A stretch of 38,413 nucleotides of DNA, taken from a virus. Location: the IMG/VR virus record IMGVR_UViG_3300028581_000105, positions 1-38,413 of that record. One strand, given 5' to 3'. Below, piece by piece: positions 1-37,452 of the stretch. The notes beneath the pieces were generated by a model. The model made no database searches, had not been told where the DNA came from, and saw nothing but the letters and a program-made list of their open reading frames with translations. Position 1 is the stretch's first letter. Each line of letters begins with the position of its first letter. A program made the position numbers and the translations under genes.

Positions 1-118
1 TCCTTGCTACAATAAATTCAGCCTTACTTCTTAAAAAGATCTTTTTATTATCCCACGTTTCATGGTATCCAATGTAACCCCTATTTTTAACACTACCTTT
101 TTTTACTTTACCTCCCAT
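1..118 (-). CDS. Free-standing homing endonuclease, N-terminal fragment (cut by window start)
   Basis: An open frame begins with ATG at 118-116 and runs off the window at base 1, giving 39 codons. The start reads MGGKVKKGSVKNRGYIGY and later has IFLRSKAEF. This style (GYIGYH, then FLRSxxEFIxAR) is what I associate with phage homing endonucleases of the Vsr-like type found between split-intein halves. It lies directly downstream of the gene for the N-half of the split reductase, with 53 bases between. A copy of the ATATTTAT motif (132-139) is 13 bases upstream of the ATG. The C-terminal intein half and the rest of the reductase should follow beyond the window. The frame and position are seen; the endonuclease identity is inferred from a short fragment. 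Confidence 0.55.
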   Translation of the reverse strand, partial: MGGKVKKGSVKNRGYIGYHETWDNKKIFLRSKAEFIVAR

Positions 119-131
119 ATTGTTTTATTAT

Positions 132-139
132 ATAAATAT
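132..139 (-). promoter_or_regulatory. Candidate late promoter motif (ATATTTAT)
   Basis: ATATTTAT is read on the minus strand 13 bases before the ATG at 118. It is one of about ten intergenic copies in this window that sit 4-20 bases upstream of minus-strand starts. The promoter role is inferred from this recurrence. Confidence 0.4.
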
Positions 140-171
140 ACGGGAGGTAGGTAAAAAGATAACGAATTTTG

Positions 172-2367
172 TTATTTCATTTCTTGTATGTCATCCTCTT
201 CTGTTAAATCTTTAGCTTCAACCCAACCTCTATTAATTGTGTAAAATCTGTGATCATCAGTACAAGTTATTTGTTTTTCAACACCATCAACATCTACGGT
301 TAATCTAATAACTGGGCTATCTTTTTTAGTTAGTTGTCCAGCAATAACTTTTTTATTTTCGATTACACCTGTTTCAATGTTGAATGTAGGTACTTCCAAC
401 TGTTCACCATTATTAATCATTTCCACTATATCTCTAATGGTTTTAACATTACCACCACATTCTATTTTAGTATCACCAATAAAACAACAAGGATTAGTCC
501 CCCAATCTTTATCGTTAGTTAAATAGATTCCTGGTTCTCCAGCCCCACTTAATTCAATACGTTTCCAAAGGTCGTTAAAAAAGTCTTGTGTAATCTTATG
601 ACGTACCAATACTGCTGAATTGTTTGCTCTACCTCTTTGTGGGTTTTGTTCCCACCAATTACCAGACTTACAAGCAATCATCTCTTCATCATCAGCAGAG
701 AACAAACTAATCAAAGCTGCCCTACGAATACCACCTGCTAATACTGCGTCAGCAATATAACAAACCACATCGTGTACCTCAATCGGTGTTACTTTTTCAC
801 CGTCTTCTTTATTGTCCAAAACTTTTTTAATATTGTGTAAACAATCTTTAAGTGGTTGAGGTCCTGGTGCTTTACCGCCTGAAGTCACCAATCTAGCTCC
901 TTTTGGGCGAATATCTGAAAAATCAAATATTGGTGTTGATGATTTGCCACCAAAATAAGATTCCATTAGTATTTTAATGGCGTCAGCCCAACCTTCGATA
1001 GAATCACCGATAAGATATCTTCTAGTTCTATTTGGGTTTGGTTTTTTAATTTCGGGTAACTTATCGACATGATGTTTTTGTACAGAATACCCAACACCGG
1101 TACCACCTAATAAAAGAAACATGGTTTCAGCAAAAGCGTCTGTATGGTCAATTGGCATATATGCACAATTACCGGTCACAATACCACCACTCAATACAAA
1201 AGAGTGGTCATCTTCAACTTCTAAACACCAAACTTCTGATATTTCAATATTTTTTTCAATGTTTGTAACAACCCAAGTGGTTTGTGGTTTACTACCAATA
1301 TTTGAACTTATAGAATATTTTTTACTATCTGGATTTCTTTTAACATCATCACCTAAATTTGACGTTAAATCTTCTATATTTTTTTCAGTTAAAATATATT
1401 GTCCTACGGTTTCAAAAACTTCCTCAACAACTTTTTGATGTACTTTATCTGAAACATATATTGATTTGTATTTTGATAATTTTTGGTTTTGGTACCAGTC
1501 AGGATTTTTATAGGCATCCGCACATAAATAACCATCAACAAAAGCTTTTACTAAATTAATATCGTCAACATTTAAATCAGGAAATTGTTTTAAATATTTT
1601 CCAGTGTAAACCATTGAATCACCTTTTATTGATAAACTTTCGGAACTTTCAAAACCCATTTCGATAAATCTATCTAAATACTTTTGTTTGTCGTCACCGC
1701 AAAGTCTAACCATAGAGTATTTGTAATCTCCATTTTTATCTTTAACATTTGTTCCGTCACCAAAAACATAACCATAACACCAGTAAAGCCTTTCAAAAGG
1801 TGTTGCCTCATAATAATCAAACGACCCAAAATTTGGTGTTTTAAATATTTTACCCCCTACGGTTAAGTCAGTGGTTTCTTCACCACCATATAAAATCCAC
1901 CTATGATTATTTGTTGCTTTAACTTTTTTAACACTTTTACCCCTATTAAATGTTATTTCATTTAAAGTTTGTTTACCATAATTTTTAACTACAGCTTTTT
2001 TCCAATTACCTAAATGTGTTAAAACGGTAATTTGATCACCATCTTCAAAATCTTCAAAAGATTTAACACCTTTACTGGTTATAAATTTAGTATCTTCACT
2101 AAAACAATTGTAAATTCTGTTCGGGCTTATCTCAACAGGTTTACCACCGAACTGTAAACTTCTCATTGACGGTAAAACTTTTTTGTTGTAAACCAACTTA
2201 TAGACTTTTTCAATATCTTCTTTTAGTTGTGGATATTTTTTTTGGTGCATCTCTTTATTTCTGGTCACCAATTCTTCCCAAGTTTCTCTTCTGTTTAACT
2301 CTGGGATGTATTTTGCGTATTTCATATAGACAGTTAAGTCCGAGAGTATTTTGTTTGAAATCTCCAT
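172..2367 (-). CDS. nrdJ: Class II (adenosylcobalamin-dependent) ribonucleotide reductase, N-terminal part, carrying one full intein and the N-half of a split intein
   Basis: This makes deoxyribonucleotides for phage DNA synthesis using a B12-generated thiyl radical. Extein residues 1-87 and 401-627 of the 731-residue product resemble monomeric RTPR: CAYMPIDHTDAFAETMF at 401, LLLGGTGVGYSVQ, SGGKAPGPQPLKDC near 497, AGGIRRAA near 544, and NPC at 625-627. C401 corresponds to the redox cysteine (C119 in the Lactobacillus enzyme) and C627 to the radical cysteine (C408). Residues 88-400 are a contiguous intein. Residues 628-731 are an N-intein that ends in a stop codon, so this gene alone cannot give a full enzyme. 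The C-terminal part, including the C-terminal redox cysteines, must be in a separate gene beyond base 1, to be joined by trans-splicing. The ATG at 2367 directly precedes the extein sequence. It is last in the replication module. Confidence 0.9.
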   Translation of the reverse strand: MEISNKILSDLTVYMKYAKYIPELNRRETWEELVTRNKEMHQKKYPQLKEDIEKVYKLVYNKKVLPSMRSLQFGGKPVEISPNRIYNCFSEDTKFITSKGVKSFEDFEDGDQITVLTHLGNWKKAVVKNYGKQTLNEITFNRGKSVKKVKATNNHRWILYGGEETTDLTVGGKIFKTPNFGSFDYYEATPFERLYWCYGYVFGDGTNVKDKNGDYKYSMVRLCGDDKQKYLDRFIEMGFESSESLSIKGDSMVYTGKYLKQFPDLNVDDINLVKAFVDGYLCADAYKNPDWYQNQKLSKYKSIYVSDKVHQKVVEEVFETVGQYILTEKNIEDLTSNLGDDVKRNPDSKKYSISSNIGSKPQTTWVVTNIEKNIEISEVWCLEVEDDHSFVLSGGIVTGNCAYMPIDHTDAFAETMFLLLGGTGVGYSVQKHHVDKLPEIKKPNPNRTRRYLIGDSIEGWADAIKILMESYFGGKSSTPIFDFSDIRPKGARLVTSGGKAPGPQPLKDCLHNIKKVLDNKEDGEKVTPIEVHDVVCYIADAVLAGGIRRAALISLFSADDEEMIACKSGNWWEQNPQRGRANNSAVLVRHKITQDFFNDLWKRIELSGAGEPGIYLTNDKDWGTNPCCFIGDTKIECGGNVKTIRDIVEMINNGEQLEVPTFNIETGVIENKKVIAGQLTKKDSPVIRLTVDVDGVEKQITCTDDHRFYTINRGWVEAKDLTEEDDIQEMK
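175..486 (-). other. Split intein N-half (NrdJ-1-like) in the ribonucleotide reductase
   Basis: This codes for 104 residues beginning CFIGDTKIEC and ending in a stop with no C-terminal splicing motifs, which is the form of an N-intein of a split intein. The insertion follows the NPC radical-cysteine motif exactly, the site of the described NrdJ-1 split intein (native junction NPC / SEI). Shared features with NrdJ-1 as I recall it include the length (about 105), IxEVVEI-like spacing, a TRCTPDHPVYTKNRG-like block (here ITCTDDHRFYTINRGW), and an acidic tail after ADELT (here AKDLTEEDD). The C-half is expected upstream of base 1. Confidence 0.85.
1168..2106 (-). other. Contiguous intein with LAGLIDADG homing endonuclease in the ribonucleotide reductase
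   Basis: This codes for 313 residues (C88 to N400 of the reductase reading). Block A is CFSEDTKFIT. The C-terminal splicing block is SFVLSGGIVTGN followed by extein C401. The penultimate residue is Gly, not the usual His, as in a minority of active inteins. Two LAGLIDADG-like motifs are visible: CYGYVFGDG near intein residue 110 and AFVDGYLCADA near 188, so the endonuclease looks intact. The insertion is immediately before the redox cysteine of the enzyme. Removal by cis protein splicing restores the sequence IYN-CAYMP. Confidence 0.88.
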
Positions 2368-2394: not shown

Positions 2395-2856
2395 TTATTT
2401 TCCTTTTTGTAACTCTTTTGCTCGTTGAATTCTTTCACGAACATGACCTTCTTTTCTTTCATCTTGTTTCTTTTCGTAACCCAAGAATGTTTGTGAACTT
2501 TCAGTATCAATATAAACTTTTCCGTTGTCAAATGTGCAGTCATCAAAAATAACACCATCTTTACCGAAACGTGATTTTAAAACAGCAATTGTCGCTTTAC
2601 CCGATTCTTTTTGTGGTAATGTTCTAGCGATTGACATGATAAAATGTCCGATTTGTGCTTTCTTAATAGAACCACCCATTTGGTCTCCTGTTACAACGTC
2701 TGCCGATATTGATGAATTATGTGTATAGATGTTGTTAGCATAAAACATATGTGTATCCTCAACACTTATGTCTATTGTGTCCATATCACCAACTAACTCA
2801 ATGGATTCAATCTCATCTAATATGAAATCATCTAAATTTAAATTATGTTCTCTCAT
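2395..2856 (-). CDS. 41: Replicative DNA helicase gp41, C-terminal part with split intein C-half
   Basis: The product has 153 residues. Residues 1-47 are an intein C-half ending HMFYANNIYTHN. Residue S48 begins the C-extein: SSISADVVTGDQMGGSIKK, then a DnaB-like end containing GHFIMSIART, GKATIAVLKSRFGKDG and a basic tail. Joined to the 355-residue N-extein of the next gene upstream, this gives QGNR-SSISADVV and a 461-residue helicase, close to T4 gp41 (475). The product unwinds the phage replication fork as a hexamer. The ATG at 2856 follows the stop of the small endonuclease remnant by four bases. It is 27 bases from the reductase start. Confidence 0.9.
   Translation of the reverse strand: MREHNLNLDDFILDEIESIELVGDMDTIDISVEDTHMFYANNIYTHNSSISADVVTGDQMGGSIKKAQIGHFIMSIARTLPQKESGKATIAVLKSRFGKDGVIFDDCTFDNGKVYIDTESSQTFLGYEKKQDERKEGHVRERIQRAKELQKGK
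2716..2856 (-). other. Split intein C-half (gp41-1-like)
   Basis: This is a 47-residue C-intein with the typical block FYANNIYTHN followed by Ser+1. The described gp41-1 C-intein is about 37 residues and ends FYANDILTHN-SS, so this one has an N-terminal extension of about ten residues. The match of the final block, the Ser+1 and the host protein are all as in gp41-1. Confidence 0.88.
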
Positions 2857-2860
2857 TTTT

Positions 2861-3031
2861 TTATTTGTTTAAAAAATTTATACAATCATTTATTACTATT
2901 TCTGGGTTTTTCTTATATACAGATTCTCGTATTCTTAATAAAGAATAACCATTTTCCATTAAAAAGTCATCTTTTTTATTATCTAAAATTTTAGTTTCTT
3001 CCATATCATGCCAATGTTCAAAAATTTTCAT
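2861..3031 (-). pseudogene. Remnant of a Vsr-like homing endonuclease between the split-intein halves
   Basis: A 56-codon ORF occupies the whole gap between the two helicase genes. Its ATG overlaps the upstream stop (ATGA), and its TAA is four bases before the next ATG. Motifs run EHWHDMEETKILDNKKDDF then ENGYSLLRIRES. This resembles the C-terminal end of Vsr/DUF559-like nucleases (D..K..F..ENGY.LLRI.E). The N-terminal part with the first catalytic residues is absent, so it is likely a decayed homing endonuclease of the kind reported inside split-intein genes. It could alternatively be retained as a small expressed peptide that couples translation of the two halves. The ORF is certain; the origin is inferred. 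Confidence 0.65.
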
Positions 3032-4365
3032 TTTTTTGTGAGTAATAAATCACCTACTTTTAATCCATTGGATATAGATTTTAATTTTCCATATTTAACC
3101 GGAAATTCATGTTTGGCAGAAACTTTTATCGTTTTACCGGATTTTGTTTTTATCTCATAAACTGGTTGTTTTTCGATTGGGAATACTTTAGTTACCCTCT
3201 TAAACCCATCATGTGTTAAAATTTCATCTCCTTCATTTATTGTACCGATCTCTATTACCCCTCTATTTTTAGTCTCAACTTTTTCACGAAGAAAGATACA
3301 CCGGTTTCCTTGAACCGCAGTCCAACCAACAAGTCCGAACTCACTTAACATTGACTCAAACCCTCTCATGACATTACCTTCACCTGACCATTCGTCGGAA
3401 TAAATTTTAGATGACTCGACACAATCTATATAATCTAAAACAATTAAATCTGGTTTGAACCCTTTTGATATTTCGTGTCTAATAAATGATTTTATGGCCT
3501 GAATTGTTACACCCTCAGAAGAAAACTTTTTGATTTTTAAATCGTTTGTTTTGTTTAAAGTAACTTCTTTGTGTTTTTGTAAAACTTCTTCTTTTCTTTC
3601 AGACAATTCATTTAATTCAATTCCAGACCAACATGCCAAATGTTTTCTTTTAATAACATCTGGCATATCTTCAAAAACAATTTGTAAAACATTATAACCT
3701 TCATTGTAAGCCGTATTTGCCATTTTTGTTAATACGGTAGTTTTTCCTGTACCGTATGGGGCCAAGACAACACCAAGTTCGCCTCTTGATAACCCACCAT
3801 CGGTCAGTTCGTCAATACCATTTATTCCCGTAGGAATTGGATGTCTAAAATCCTTTTCTAAAACTGCTTCAATATTTTCACTTATAGATGTTCCATCATC
3901 TTTTTCAGAACCAACAGAAAGTGCGTCTCTTAAAATTTCTGCACACTTTTCATAACTTTCAAAATCACCGTTATCGATAATTTTGTTAATTTTTTCATTC
4001 GCTTTCTTAAGCTCTTGTTGTCGACAAAAATTTAATGCCTTTTGTTGAACAAATTCCCAGTCTTCTACCGCAAGATTATTGATTTCTTTTAACATTTCAA
4101 AAACATAGTCCTGGGTGATTTTATCCTTTACCTCCATTCTTACTATGGTTTCTAAAGTTTCATTTGCTGGAACTTTTTCATATTTCTCATAGTAATCTTT
4201 AAGTTGAGCCATGATAAGACGAAAATATTCATTATCAAAATACTTTGCGTGAACAATATCAATGATTCTATCAGAAAACTTTTTATTTGCGGGATGTAGG
4301 ATTTGGTTTATTAATTCCATTTGAAACTTGTAACCAAGGTATCCTAAAGTAACATTTTTAGTCAT
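3028..4365 (-). CDS. 41: Replicative DNA helicase gp41 (DnaB-like), N-terminal part with split intein N-half
   Basis: The product has 445 residues. Residues 1-355 are the DnaB-like N-extein with Walker A APYGTGKTT at 202-210, Walker B DLIVLDYID at 306-314, and an end at GWTAVQGNR, just where T4-type gp41 continues with the C-terminal arginine-finger region. Residues 356-445 are an N-intein. The complete helicase requires trans-splicing with the product of the gene at 2395-2856. The first 150 residues form the helical N-terminal domain typical of the family. An ATATTTAT motif (4386-4393) lies 20 bases before the ATG. The stop overlaps the next ORF by ATGA, suggesting coupled translation of both halves. 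Confidence 0.92.
   Translation of the reverse strand: MTKNVTLGYLGYKFQMELINQILHPANKKFSDRIIDIVHAKYFDNEYFRLIMAQLKDYYEKYEKVPANETLETIVRMEVKDKITQDYVFEMLKEINNLAVEDWEFVQQKALNFCRQQELKKANEKINKIIDNGDFESYEKCAEILRDALSVGSEKDDGTSISENIEAVLEKDFRHPIPTGINGIDELTDGGLSRGELGVVLAPYGTGKTTVLTKMANTAYNEGYNVLQIVFEDMPDVIKRKHLACWSGIELNELSERKEEVLQKHKEVTLNKTNDLKIKKFSSEGVTIQAIKSFIRHEISKGFKPDLIVLDYIDCVESSKIYSDEWSGEGNVMRGFESMLSEFGLVGWTAVQGNRCIFLREKVETKNRGVIEIGTINEGDEILTHDGFKRVTKVFPIEKQPVYEIKTKSGKTIKVSAKHEFPVKYGKLKSISNGLKVGDLLLTKK
3031..3300 (-). other. Split intein N-half (gp41-1-like)
   Basis: This is a 90-residue N-intein starting CIFLREKVET and ending GLKVGDLLLTKK before the stop. The gp41-1 N-intein has 88 residues, with the same plan: NVQVGD-like INEGDEILTHDGF, VTKVFP, KITLEDGK-like IKTKSGKTI, a conserved CSEEHLFP-like block (SAKHEFPVKYG) and SNGLKVGD near the end. 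The insertion site (after GNR, before SS) is also that of gp41-1. Confidence 0.9.
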
Positions 4366-5953: not shown

Positions 5954-6152
5954 TCTCCATGAAATTAAATGGTTTGACAATTTGTTTTTCTTCTTCGTTT
6001 GGTAGTAATATACCTAGGTGTTTTAATTCGGATATTTCAATGGTTGTTGCGTGATCATGAAGGTAACTTCTAACCATATCATGTAAGATAGATTCCATCT
6101 CTGATGATGTAATACCCGCAACAACCGCTTTATATTGACCCCAATTTATCAC
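5931..6152 (-). CDS. Small protein of unknown function between uvsX and rnh
   Basis: This is a 73-residue protein starting with GTG that shares a base with the uvsX stop (TAGTG), so it is probably translated by coupling. It begins MINWGQYKAVVAGITSSEME and is predicted largely helical and acidic, with no recognisable domain. Its position inside a tight replication operon suggests a recombination or replication accessory role, which is inference only. The 3' end overlaps the start of the RNase H gene. Confidence 0.75.
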   Translation of the reverse strand: MINWGQYKAVVAGITSSEMESILHDMVRSYLHDHATTIEISELKHLGILLPNEEEKQIVKPFNFMENDRSQEG

Positions 6153-33566: not shown

Positions 33567-35150
33567 CTAATAATTGGAAAATTGCCATCTTATATGACCA
33601 CAATCATATATTCGATATATTTTACGATTAAACATTATTTCTTTTTCGGTTTGTTTAACATCAAAGCCTTGTTTAATTAACTCAGATTTTTTGAAATTTA
33701 ACCTATGGTATCTAATACCGTTATGGATATACCAATAATTTGGTTTTGTTGACCCACAATTTTCAAACCCTAATTTTGTGTAAACACCACCGTTAAACCA
33801 ACGGTTATCTGAGTATGATATAATTTTTTTAACCCTAAAATTTTTGGTAAAAAAACTAAATAATCTGGAGGCCGCTCCCACCACAATCGTATTTTTCTTA
33901 TTACAAAATCTAATTAGTTCCCAATCGATATTATTACCAACACCATTTCTTTTTCCAAAAGTCATCAAAGAAACTAATTCGTCTTTATAGTACAATCCAA
34001 GTTTAACAGTAGAAGACACATTTCCCTGTATATGGTTTTCAGATAAAAAAAGTTTACTTTCATTAGGTGTGACTTTTTTTATTTCACAGTTTCTGGAATA
34101 TATTTTAGTTGAAATTAGTTTAAGTTTATTTTTTAATATGGATAAAACAATCTCTTGTTTAAACAACCATTCATCTTCGAAAATATGGATTAAATCAATA
34201 TTAGATTTTTTACATAAATTAGTTTTTACTAAATGGTAATCATTTGCCACATATAATTCATTATGCCAATAAATTCCGTCAAACTCAATAGCTGTTTTTA
34301 TTGATGGGATATAAATATCAATTTCAAGAGAAGAATTTGGTATTCTATTGTGTCTTTCATATTCGATACCCCAATCATCTAATATAGAACATAGTGAATC
34401 TTCATGCGACGACGAAAAACTCATGCCAATTGGGTTACATTTTGTGCATAGAACGTAATTATGTTTTTTCCTTTCTCGTAATAAATTTTGTGTTATAGAA
34501 TACACATCGTCACATTTATTACATTTAATATCGAGCATAGATAAATCGGTGGTAATTTTTTGGATTTCTAACTCTGGGTATCGTTCAATAACCTTATTGC
34601 TTAATAAATTTTTATAACTATCCGATTTAGCAAAGTTATCAACCCCATATTTTATATTACAAGTTTCTTTATACTTTTCAAAATTATTATACATTTTACT
34701 CCCATATAATTTTAATTTTGTTTGTAACATTTTTTCAGTATTGTTATAGTTTTTATCACCATAACACTCAATTTTGGTTTTATCACGTTTTTTAATGAAG
34801 TCTTTGTGTTGGGTGTAAAACTCCACATTATGGTTTTTTAAGTTAGATTCTTTGATTTTATTAATCAATAACCCACTGTTATTTGCACATTCTAAAGAAC
34901 AAAACTGATTGTATCCACGGTCAAATCTTTCCGAAAATTTAACTTCAGTATTACAAGACTGACATTTTGGTTTTTGTGTTAGATTATTGAAATAAAACCA
35001 TATTTTTTCTTTAAAAGAAGAATCTGGTTTTAAATACTGTTGACAATACGATATTATATCAACGTATTCTTGAGGGTAATTTTTTGCAAACCACGCCTCT
35101 TTGGTTTTGTGACCAGATTTATTATCTGTTGTAAAAAAAGAAAAGTCCAT
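33567..35150 (-). CDS. Homing-type endonuclease with zinc fingers and Vsr-like nuclease core (copy 1)
   Basis: The 527-residue protein is probably a mobile site-specific endonuclease. From the N-terminus: CQSCNTEV...FCSLECAN zinc finger; repeats with a KYG core (KIECYGDKNY, KLKLYGSKMY, NIKYGVDNF) typical of phage DNA-binding repeats; a second zinc knuckle (CNKCDDVY...CTKCNPIG); nuclease core EIDIYIPSIKTAIEFDGIYW, followed by IDLIHIFEDEW; and a C-terminal domain (NHIQGNVSSTVKLGLYYKDE, SYSDNRWFNGGVYTKLGF) resembling a GNAT-like fold. I chose ATG at 35150 (MDFSFFTTDNKSGH) because it aligns with the start of the paralogue at 35809; the frame is open to 35195. Confidence 0.85.
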   Translation of the reverse strand: MDFSFFTTDNKSGHKTKEAWFAKNYPQEYVDIISYCQQYLKPDSSFKEKIWFYFNNLTQKPKCQSCNTEVKFSERFDRGYNQFCSLECANNSGLLINKIKESNLKNHNVEFYTQHKDFIKKRDKTKIECYGDKNYNNTEKMLQTKLKLYGSKMYNNFEKYKETCNIKYGVDNFAKSDSYKNLLSNKVIERYPELEIQKITTDLSMLDIKCNKCDDVYSITQNLLRERKKHNYVLCTKCNPIGMSFSSSHEDSLCSILDDWGIEYERHNRIPNSSLEIDIYIPSIKTAIEFDGIYWHNELYVANDYHLVKTNLCKKSNIDLIHIFEDEWLFKQEIVLSILKNKLKLISTKIYSRNCEIKKVTPNESKLFLSENHIQGNVSSTVKLGLYYKDELVSLMTFGKRNGVGNNIDWELIRFCNKKNTIVVGAASRLFSFFTKNFRVKKIISYSDNRWFNGGVYTKLGFENCGSTKPNYWYIHNGIRYHRLNFKKSELIKQGFDVKQTEKEIMFNRKIYRIYDCGHIRWQFSNY

Positions 35151-35164
35151 ACATTTATTTATTA

Positions 35165-35172
35165 ATAAATAT
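35165..35172 (-). promoter_or_regulatory. Candidate late promoter motif before endonuclease copy 1
   Basis: ATATTTATTA on the minus strand lies about 14 bases before the ATG at 35150. A further ATATTTAT at 35217-35224 is in the same gap after the tail tube gene. Confidence 0.35.
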
Positions 35173-35264
35173 ACGGACTTTTCGTTGGTTGTCAAGTATG
35201 TACTTATTTAAGAAAAATAAATATATACAGAGAAAACAAAGTTTGTATTTGATAGAGAAATAAA

Positions 35265-35753
35265 TCAGAACACACTAATAGCTCTGTCAAAACGGAGCGT
35301 TGCAGTGATTTCAGCAATTTCAGATGTACTATAATCTAAAGAACCGAAGTCAACATCGTTCAACATGGTTCCCTGAAGAATCCATTTTTCGATTACAACA
35401 CCCGTTGGGTCTAACATTTCTAATTCAATGTCTTTCTTGTAACCAGCAGCATAACCTTGTCTGCCCGTCACTGATTCTGAATGTAAACGTACCCACTCCA
35501 TAAGAGCTTGGGTAGCCGAAGGACCAATCGGGTCACGGAAAGTTACACTGATAGTTTCCCATTTAAACCTACCAACCACAAAGGTAGAGGTGTTAAGGAA
35601 TTGAATTTCAGTTTCTTCCGATGTGTATTTAGGTCTAGAAGCTGATTTTACATACCACTCCTGGATCCCAAGCGGAGATGGAAATCTTAAAATAAATCGG
35701 TTTTGTTTTTTTGGTTCGTAAGGAATGGGCATCCTCATCAATAAATCTGCCAT
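35265..35753 (-). CDS. 19: gp19-like tail tube protein
   Basis: The 162-residue protein forms the stacked rings of the inner tail tube. It shows the gp19 pattern: RFILRFPSPLGIQEWYVKSA near the start, ETEIQFLNTSTFVVGRFKWE, ISVTFRDPIGPSATQALMEW, a Gly/Tyr-rich loop (GRQGYAAGYKKD), DIELEMLDPTGVVIEKW and TATLRFDRAI at the end. T4 gp19 is 163 residues. GC content is visibly higher than in its neighbours. The gene is flanked on both sides by paralogous endonucleases. Confidence 0.93.
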   Translation of the reverse strand: MADLLMRMPIPYEPKKQNRFILRFPSPLGIQEWYVKSASRPKYTSEETEIQFLNTSTFVVGRFKWETISVTFRDPIGPSATQALMEWVRLHSESVTGRQGYAAGYKKDIELEMLDPTGVVIEKWILQGTMLNDVDFGSLDYSTSEIAEITATLRFDRAISVF

Positions 35754-35808: not shown

Positions 35809-37452
35809 ATGATAAACGAATATTTTTTATTTTTTATGGATAATAAATCTGGTTGGAAAACCAACGAAAAAAAATTATCCAAAAAAGAACCAAAAATTTA
35901 TGAAGAGGTTAAAATTTTTATTGAAAAAAATTCATTAAACTATTTACCTTTTCAACAACAAGTTTGGCACTTTATTAATAAATATATCGAAATACCAAAA
36001 TGTGCAGAATGTAATAAAAATTTAAATTTCAAAAGAAGTTTAAAAGAAGGGTATGGGAAGTATTGTTCTTTAATTTGTACCAATAAAAATAAAGATCATA
36101 TTCAAAATGTAAAAAACACTAATAATAAAAAATACGGCGGTAACGCACCAATAAATTCTCAGTCTGTTAAAAACAAAATAGAAAAAACTAATTTACAAAA
36201 ATATGGTGTTGAGAACACTTATAATAGAATCGATTTAGTTGAAAAAGGTTTTTTACAAAAATACGGTGTTAATCATGTTTCCAAAGTTGAAGGTGTTACC
36301 GAAAGGAAAAAACTAACCAATATCGAGAAATACGGAAAATCTACAATTTTATCAACCTCAGAGGTCTTGGGTAAAACGCATGATACTAGAAGAAAATATT
36401 TTATCGAAAAATATGATAAATTTGATTTTATAACATACACAGGTGACACCTTAAATATTATTTGCCAGGTATGTAATAAAAATTATGATATTCACCGTAA
36501 TAGTTTTAGATATCGTGTATTAGCTAATGTTAATCCTTGTACATTGTGTAACCCAATAGGTGAATCGACTTCTATCCAGGAAAAAGAATTACAAAAATTA
36601 GTAGCAGAAATAACTAACGGTAATTGTTTGCTTAACGATAGAAGTTTAATCTCGCCAAAAGAGTTAGATATATTTATCCCAGATAAAAAACTGGCAATAG
36701 AATTCAATGGGGTTTATTGGCATAATGAATTTTTTGTTGAGAAAGAGTACCATTTAAAAAAGTATTTAAATTGTAAATCTAAAAATGTTGACTTAATACA
36801 AATATTCCAAGATGAGTGGGAGGTTAAAAAAGATATTATAACCTCTTTAATAAAAAATAGGCTGGGGATTAACGGTAAAAATGTAATATACGCCAGAAAA
36901 TGTGAAATAAAAGTGGTAGGTAATAAAGAGCATAATGATTTTTTAAATAAAAACCATATCCAAGGAAAGGTTAACTCTTCTGTTAAGTTAGGTTTATACT
37001 ATAACGATGAATTAGTATCTTTGATGACGTTTGGCAGGCTTAGAAAATCTTTAGGATCTAAACATGTTGAAGGTGAATGGGAGTTAATAAGATTCTGTAA
37101 TAAATTAAATTACAATGTTTTAGGCGGGGCTTCTAGGTTATTTAAATCTTTTATAAAAACGTATGACCCTAAAAAAATATTATCTTTTTCTGATAACAGA
37201 CTTTTTAACGGTAATATGTATAAAGTATTGGGGTTTGAGTATGAGGGGTATTCGAAACCGTCTTATTTTTATGTTATAAACGGAATTAGATACCATAGAT
37301 ATAATTTTAGAAAAGATGTTTTAGTTGCTGAAGGGTATGATAAAGATAAAACTGAACATCAAATAATGCAAGAAAGGGGTATCCCTAGAATCTACGATTG
37401 TGGTAATAAAAAATGGGTCTGGAAAACCCAAACCCATTTTAATGATGTTTAA
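35809..37452 (+). CDS. Homing-type endonuclease with zinc fingers and Vsr-like nuclease core (copy 2)
   Basis: The 547-residue paralogue of 33567-35150 has the same domain order: zinc finger CAECNKNL...YCSLICTN; KYG repeats (NNKKYGGNAP, NLQKYGVENTYN, FLQKYGVNHVS, NIEKYGKST); second zinc knuckle CQVCNKNY...CTLCNPIG; nuclease core ELDIFIPDKKLAIEFNGVYW, with VDLIQIFQDEW; C-terminal domain NKNHIQGKVNSSVKLGLYYN and SFSDNRLFNGNMYKVLGFEY. It is oriented opposite to copy 1, with the tail tube gene between. The last 15 codons contain a hairpin that serves as a terminator for the convergent gene. No clear promoter is seen. Confidence 0.87.
   Translation: MINEYFLFFMDNKSGWKTNEKKLSKKEPKIYEEVKIFIEKNSLNYLPFQQQVWHFINKYIEIPKCAECNKNLNFKRSLKEGYGKYCSLICTNKNKDHIQNVKNTNNKKYGGNAPINSQSVKNKIEKTNLQKYGVENTYNRIDLVEKGFLQKYGVNHVSKVEGVTERKKLTNIEKYGKSTILSTSEVLGKTHDTRRKYFIEKYDKFDFITYTGDTLNIICQVCNKNYDIHRNSFRYRVLANVNPCTLCNPIGESTSIQEKELQKLVAEITNGNCLLNDRSLISPKELDIFIPDKKLAIEFNGVYWHNEFFVEKEYHLKKYLNCKSKNVDLIQIFQDEWEVKKDIITSLIKNRLGINGKNVIYARKCEIKVVGNKEHNDFLNKNHIQGKVNSSVKLGLYYNDELVSLMTFGRLRKSLGSKHVEGEWELIRFCNKLNYNVLGGASRLFKSFIKTYDPKKILSFSDNRLFNGNMYKVLGFEYEGYSKPSYFYVINGIRYHRYNFRKDVLVAEGYDKDKTEHQIMQERGIPRIYDCGNKKWVWKTQTHFNDV
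37410..37440 (-). terminator. Terminator of 37460-38413 embedded in the endonuclease 3' end
   Basis: On the minus strand AAAATGGGT (37440-37432) pairs with ACCCATTTT (37418-37410), with a T6 tract. The hairpin codes on the plus strand for the last residues of the endonuclease (KWVWKTQTHF region). Confidence 0.65.

What the first reader, a model, noticed from the sequence alone, without database searches (positions are those of the whole stretch)
2861..3031. 56-codon relic of a Vsr-like homing endonuclease bridging the split-intein halves
The gap between the helicase halves is filled exactly by an ORF that overlaps the upstream stop (ATGA) and ends four bases before the next ATG. It keeps only the C-terminal end of a Vsr/DUF559-like nuclease. 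This looks like a late stage of the homing cycle, in which the endonuclease is lost but the reading frame and translational coupling remain. A retained role in coupling expression is possible.
Basis: partly seen in the sequence, partly recalled or inferred. Interest (0 to 1): 0.72.

Follow-up and report, generated by a model that had tools for sequence, protein, structure and literature searches.

The report
Stump of a lost homing endonuclease
Between the two halves of a phage helicase gene that is broken by a split intein lies a 56-codon reading frame that is the leftover tail of a roughly 380-400-residue DNA-cutting mobility gene; relatives show the same gene intact, half-deleted or gone, so this is one frame of a selfish element's decay rather than a new gene.

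Summary
The 56-codon ORF (2861-3031, minus strand) overlaps the upstream stop as ATGA and ends 4 nt before the next ATG. It lies between the halves of a DnaB/gp41-type helicase gene broken by a gp41-1-like split intein. The relic interpretation is supported. The ORF matches the last 52 positions of a 372-418-aa EDxHD (Vsr/MTES_1575-like) nuclease encoded at exactly this place in relatives (56 bits; best of 1812 scored shuffles 9.7). A single deletion of about 1.02 kb from such a locus reproduces the window. The ORF lacks the DNA-binding repeats, the N-terminal part of the nuclease fold and three conserved acidic residues. Of 56 distinct inserts at this site, 32 hold a full-length or nearly full-length nuclease region, 10 a truncated one, 12 essentially none, and 2 are contiguous inteins. 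Two near-identical genomes differ by a 1270-nt nuclease deletion at a 10-bp repeat. One correction: the ATGA start is not inherited from the nuclease; it comes from the intein-N stop plus spacer. Only the 3' junction is inherited, probably because the nuclease's last codons carry the A-rich start region of the downstream half (inferred). No same-length independent gene was found. A coupling role remains possible but unproven.

The parts
3301..4365 (-). N-extein of the DnaB/gp41-like replicative helicase (355 codons)
   Evidence: PHROG 19 E=2e-51, DnaB_C E=4e-10; relatives continue without a break into the C-extein
3031..3300 (-). gp41-1-type split intein, N half (90 codons, starts CIFLRE, ends LLLTKK); its stop is 3028-3030
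   Evidence: PDB 6QAZ gp41-1 E=1.2e-17 for IN+IC; Intein_splicing E=3e-5
2861..3031 (-). 56-codon ORF: C-terminal stump of the homing endonuclease (residues 5-56, approx. 2864-3019, nuclease-derived; residues 1-4 come from the intein-N stop and the old spacer)
   Evidence: HMM of 20 intact nucleases from the same site: 56.3 bits, model 351-402; alignments A1, A4
3014..3022 (-). deletion junction (approximate): about 1.02 kb absent relative to an L087-like intact locus
   Evidence: exhaustive single-deletion fit, 67 of 90 nt matched with no other indel
2716..2856 (-). gp41-1-type split intein, C half (47 codons, ends YTHN before S+1)
2398..2715 (-). C-extein of the helicase (106 codons); stop 2395-2397
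   Evidence: matches the contiguous helicase of intein-free relatives from residue 46-48 of this ORF onwards, 83-97% identity in the closest ones

Best explanation
The ORF is the 3' stump of a homing endonuclease gene that once sat as a free-standing gene between the two halves of a fractured helicase gene. Shown: relatives have a 372-418-codon EDxHD/Vsr-like nuclease here; in the window a single deletion of about 1.02 kb can account for the join between the spacer just after the intein-N stop and the codons at the nuclease's W-H motif. Gone with it are the spacer element, the start codon, the DNA-binding repeats, the N-terminal part of the nuclease fold and the acidic residues equivalent to E324, D340 and E349. 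Inferred: the stump has no nuclease activity, so this intein can no longer home by itself, while the intact split intein still trans-splices the helicase. The tail was left because its last codons double as the A-rich translation-initiation region of the intein-C/helicase-C cistron, so deletions reaching that far tend to be selected against. If translated, the stump only carries ribosomes up to that start. Confidence below is for the relic reading; the reason for the tail's survival I hold at about 0.5.
For: Same-site intact nucleases and a full decay series. Profile match of 56 bits versus at most 9.7 in shuffles. One-deletion reconstruction. Conserved E324, D340, E349, H356, D365 in 20 intact copies, of which only the H and D equivalents survive in the window. 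Nuclease profile matches I-Bth0305I (3R3P) at E=2.5e-7, and the model's top fold hit is 3R3P, TMt 0.73, although its Foldseek E is only 0.09. Independent deletions in relatives: L004 versus L006 (937 nt, 98-99% identical flanks) and L181 versus L184 (1270 nt at a 10-bp direct repeat, 99.9% flanks). A spacer with TTTTGT and TATATTTATA elements upstream of most intact nucleases is lost here. In intact loci the nuclease stop lies within -15 to +26 nt of the intein-C ATG except in three (-39 to -43), with an A-rich leader formed by its last codons. Several otherwise nuclease-free loci keep about the last 7-12 nuclease codons (L181, L167, L196, L218, L194).
Against: The stump is not visibly decayed: its 74.3 bits are just under the lowest of 15 intact copies in a leave-one-out test (74.9-101.4, mean 86), so either loss is recent or some constraint remains. 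AlphaFold gives the 56-mer a confident beta-alpha-beta-alpha fold (pLDDT 94), so it could be a stable peptide. L162 keeps an N-terminal piece instead, L188 an N-terminal piece with only a short tail, and L180, L158, L154 and L151 show no clear tail, so keeping the tail is not a strict rule.
Confidence: 0.88

Rival explanations
1. The stump is translated and kept by selection as a ribosome bridge: ribosomes ending at the intein-N stop restart at ATGA, cross 56 codons and restart at the intein-C ATG 4 nt further on, keeping the two helicase halves in balance.
For: ATGA overlap and 4-nt gap; open frame and near-intact profile score; L187 and L180 also have the upstream stop overlapping the intein-C ATG; a shared stump in L190/L193 has dN/dS 0.31, Fisher p=0.01 against 1.
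Against: Gaps of 36-101 nt in other reduced loci; a nonsense codon in the L202 stump and decay of L217; L190/L193 dN/dS of 0.31 is 5-10 times that of the intein halves (0.06, 0.03), and may include time before the deletion; overlapping starts also occur elsewhere in this genome (for example at 6152).
Confidence: 0.12
2. An independent small phage gene unrelated to the nuclease.
For: Direct searches with the 56-mer alone found only one near-identical contig and weak matches.
Against: Profile match E=2.8e-16 at the orthologous position; no free-standing short homologue among 63 loci, the one short frame being a copy of the L190-type stump.
Confidence: 0.01
3. Assembly artefact joining two pieces across a repeat.
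For: The window is a metagenomic virus contig.
Against: A second contig has the same junction; independent deletions of the same kind occur in several lineages.
Confidence: 0.02

Closest known systems
Fractured genes with gp41-type split inteins and Vsr-like endonuclease genes (Dassa et al. 2009, NAR 37:2560; content known to me from memory, full text not held)
   Same: Helicase gene broken by a gp41-1-like split intein, with an endonuclease ORF between the halves; a second, NrdJ-type fractured gene lies next to it
   Different: Here the endonuclease is reduced to its last ~52 codons and its start and spacer element are gone
EDxHD homing endonucleases (I-Bth0305I, PDB 3R3P)
   Same: Intact relatives at this site match the catalytic domain by sequence and fold
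   Different: The window's ORF keeps only the H and D positions and the last helix-strand-helix, without the DNA-binding region
Homing cycle / mini-inteins (reviewed in PMC3229294)
   Same: Endonuclease lost while the splicing element persists
   Different: Decay happens in a separate cistron between split-intein halves, leaving a spacer ORF instead of a shortened intein

Membership tests
Fractured gene / split-intein locus | Conserved gene broken in two by matching intein halves at a point where relatives are contiguous | tested here: met
Fractured gene / split-intein locus | Intact free-standing endonuclease gene between the halves | tested here: not met
   Only a 56-codon stump in the window; intact in relatives
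Fractured gene / split-intein locus | Protein trans-splicing of the two halves | not testable with these tools
   Residues look intact (C1, C-terminal HN, S+1) but activity needs a bench test
EDxHD / Vsr-like homing endonuclease | Sequence descent from the family | tested here: met
EDxHD / Vsr-like homing endonuclease | Catalytic acidic residues of the domain present | tested here: not met
   E324, D340 and E349 equivalents absent; H356 and D365 equivalents kept
EDxHD / Vsr-like homing endonuclease | DNA-binding repeat region | tested here: not met
   ORF matches model positions 351-402 only
EDxHD / Vsr-like homing endonuclease | Site-specific cleavage and homing | not testable with these tools
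   No assay; expected to be absent given the missing residues
Independent conserved small gene | Homologues of the same length in diverged genomes under purifying selection | tested here: not met
   Only one near-identical contig has this length, with an identical protein, so selection on this very ORF could not be measured
Homing-cycle decay intermediate | Related loci show intact, degraded and lost endonuclease with the splicing element kept | tested here: met

The most novel reading that the evidence does not exclude
The stump is translated and kept by selection as a translational bridge and start region, so that a parasite's tail has become a regulatory part needed for balanced synthesis of a split helicase.
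Probability: 0.13. Interest if true: 0.6.

Novelty: new member of a known kind. Interest (0 to 1): 0.42.

Why it matters
On its own the ORF is an ordinary relic. Together with its relatives it gives an unusually complete picture of the homing cycle in a fractured phage gene: empty sites, intact nuclease loci, fresh deletions between near-identical genomes at short direct repeats, stumps, full losses, and two contiguous inteins that look like split inteins joined again. It also suggests a simple reason why the nuclease's 3' end is so often the last part to go: it holds the start region of the gene's second half.

Tried and rejected
The 56-mer alone was a poor query: one near-identical contig in viral contigs and no match better than E=0.03 in phage records; the helicase and intein halves were needed to reach relatives. 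MAFFT alignments put residues MKIFE against KIIEF of the nuclease, which would need a second 12-nt deletion; the single-deletion fit was preferred. A whole-insert breakpoint fit against L177 was too diverged to place the junction. A selection test against the near-identical contig was uninformative (20 differences in 7.8 kb, identical protein for the ORF). The Dassa 2009 paper is not held. The intein tree is weakly supported (6 starred branches of 46) and its root is not inferred, so the count of changes (13) is a rough guide; one nuclease-free insert (L196/L200, 450 nt) dropped out of it because that locus also holds a second insert. An early count of 130 intein-free loci includes contigs counted twice; 75 come from the single search.

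Full report
1. Observation. The ORF at 2861-3031 (-) is 56 codons. It starts inside the stop of the upstream ORF (ATGA, 3031-3028) and stops 4 nt before the next ATG (2856). The upstream ORF is a DnaB/gp41-type helicase (PHROG 19 E=2e-51) ending in a 90-residue intein N half. The downstream ORF is an intein C half followed by the rest of the helicase. Joined, the two intein halves match the solved gp41-1 intein (6QAZ, E=1.2e-17). In 75 relatives from one search the helicase is contiguous at exactly this point.

2. What the ORF is. Searching IMG/VR with the helicase and intein halves and with the nuclease tail gave 56 distinct inserts at this site in the analysed set: 32 hold a full-length or nearly full-length nuclease region, 10 a truncated or internally deleted one (the window included), 12 essentially none, and 2 are contiguous inteins. 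A few of the 32 frames are interrupted (for example L221 and L216 give only 76 and 148 codons from an ATG). The uninterrupted genes are mostly 372-418 codons. The window ORF aligns to the last 52 positions of their profile (56.3 bits, E=2.8e-16; best of 1812 scored shuffles 9.7). The intact proteins match Pfam MTES_1575 and DUF559 and, by profile, the EDxHD homing endonuclease I-Bth0305I (3R3P, E=2.5e-7). An AlphaFold model of the L006 protein (pLDDT 85, pTM 0.34) has 3R3P as its top fold match (probability 1.00, TMt 0.73, but Foldseek E only 0.09). EDxHD as a homing endonuclease family exemplified by I-Bth0305I is described in PMC3943268; which residues correspond to E, D, H and D here is my reading of the conserved columns E324, D340, H356 and D365, with E349 also invariant. 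The window keeps only the H and D positions.

3. How it arose. Fitting one deletion to the closest intact relative (L087/L177) reproduces the window junction with no other indel: about 1021 nt are absent, from the spacer after the intein-N stop to just before the codons for Y-W-H (67 of 90 nt matched). Residues 1-4 (MKIF) therefore come from the intein-N stop and spacer, and the ATGA overlap is a by-product. The lost spacer carries, in most intact loci, a TTTTGT...TATATTTATA element upstream of the nuclease start; its role as a promoter or start signal is a guess. The same TATATTTATA stands upstream of the nuclease start at the window's NrdJ site (131-140).

4. Other loci at the same site. L004 and L006 have 98-99% identical flanks and differ by a 937-nt deletion inside the nuclease. 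L181 and L184 have 99.9% identical flanks and differ by a 1270-nt deletion between copies of TTACAAAAAA. L090, L190 and L193 are open C-terminal stumps; L202 is a stump with a nonsense codon; L217 is badly decayed; L162 and L188 keep N-terminal pieces; L257 has an internal deletion. Twelve have essentially no nuclease, though several keep about its last 7-12 codons. L224 and L225 are contiguous inteins that branch inside a clade of intact split loci. The tree needs at least 13 changes between intact and reduced states, but is weakly supported.

5. Is the stump functional? In a leave-one-out test the stump's tail scores 74.3 bits, just under the lowest of 15 intact copies (74.9-101.4, mean 86); it keeps 11 of 15 strongly conserved positions versus 12-15 in intact copies. 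This fits a recent deletion or weak residual constraint. The one pair with a shared stump, L190/L193, has dN/dS 0.31 against 0.06 and 0.03 for the intein halves: clearly relaxed, but below 1 (Fisher p=0.01); the pair's divergence may partly predate the deletion. No free-standing homologue of this length was found. A 56-mer model folds with high confidence (pLDDT 94), which shows it could be stable, not that it is made.

6. Mechanism. Nuclease loss stops self-homing but does not touch the intein halves, so the helicase can still be assembled by trans-splicing (inferred from intact residues). In intact loci the nuclease stop lies within -15 to +26 nt of the intein-C ATG in all but three, and the leader of that ATG is made of the nuclease's last A-rich codons. 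Deletions that run into this leader would harm a replication gene, which would explain why the tail tends to survive (inferred). Strict coupling is not required: reduced loci show distances from overlap to 101 nt.

7. Verdict. It is a new member of a known kind (fractured genes, Dassa et al. 2009, cited from memory because the paper is not held; homing cycle, PMC3229294). Whether partly deleted nucleases in such loci have been described before I could not check.

Noticed in passing
L181 and L184 (insert coordinates 256-266 and 1526): Two genomes with 99.9% identical flanks differ by a clean 1270-nt nuclease deletion between copies of TTACAAAAAA, a deletion caught shortly after it happened.
   Followed up: yes
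L224, L225 versus L169-L175: 387-nt contiguous inteins branch within split, nuclease-bearing loci of the same helicase; looks like a 1288-nt in-frame deletion that rejoined a split intein. Direction not proven, as the tree is unrooted.
   Followed up: partly
window 172-2367 (-) and 1-118 (-): Class II ribonucleotide reductase with one contiguous intein containing LAGLIDADG-like stretches (about 1171-2109) and a second split intein N half (about 175-486), followed by the start of another endonuclease gene cut by the contig end. Close relative L006 has only the split one with at least 310 codons of its nuclease; L004 has neither.
   Followed up: partly
window 131-140 (-) and spacers of intact loci: TATATTTATA, often with an upstream TTTTGT, stands shortly before nuclease starts in most intact fractured-gene loci; a possible control element brought in with the nuclease.
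   Followed up: partly
L190 and L193: Intein halves and stump differ at dS about 0.4 while the helicase N-extein is saturated at synonymous sites, so the intein moved between distant helicases, either before or despite loss of its nuclease.
   Followed up: no
window 33567-35195 (-) and 35809-37452 (+): Two related free-standing genes of about 545 codons (DUF7487, with an IEF(D/N)G-YWH nuclease-like motif) flank a short gene at 35265-35753, probably tail tube (my guess).
   Followed up: no
L196, L200: A second 1453-nt split-intein insert of the same intein class lies in another gene with no match to this nuclease family.
   Followed up: no
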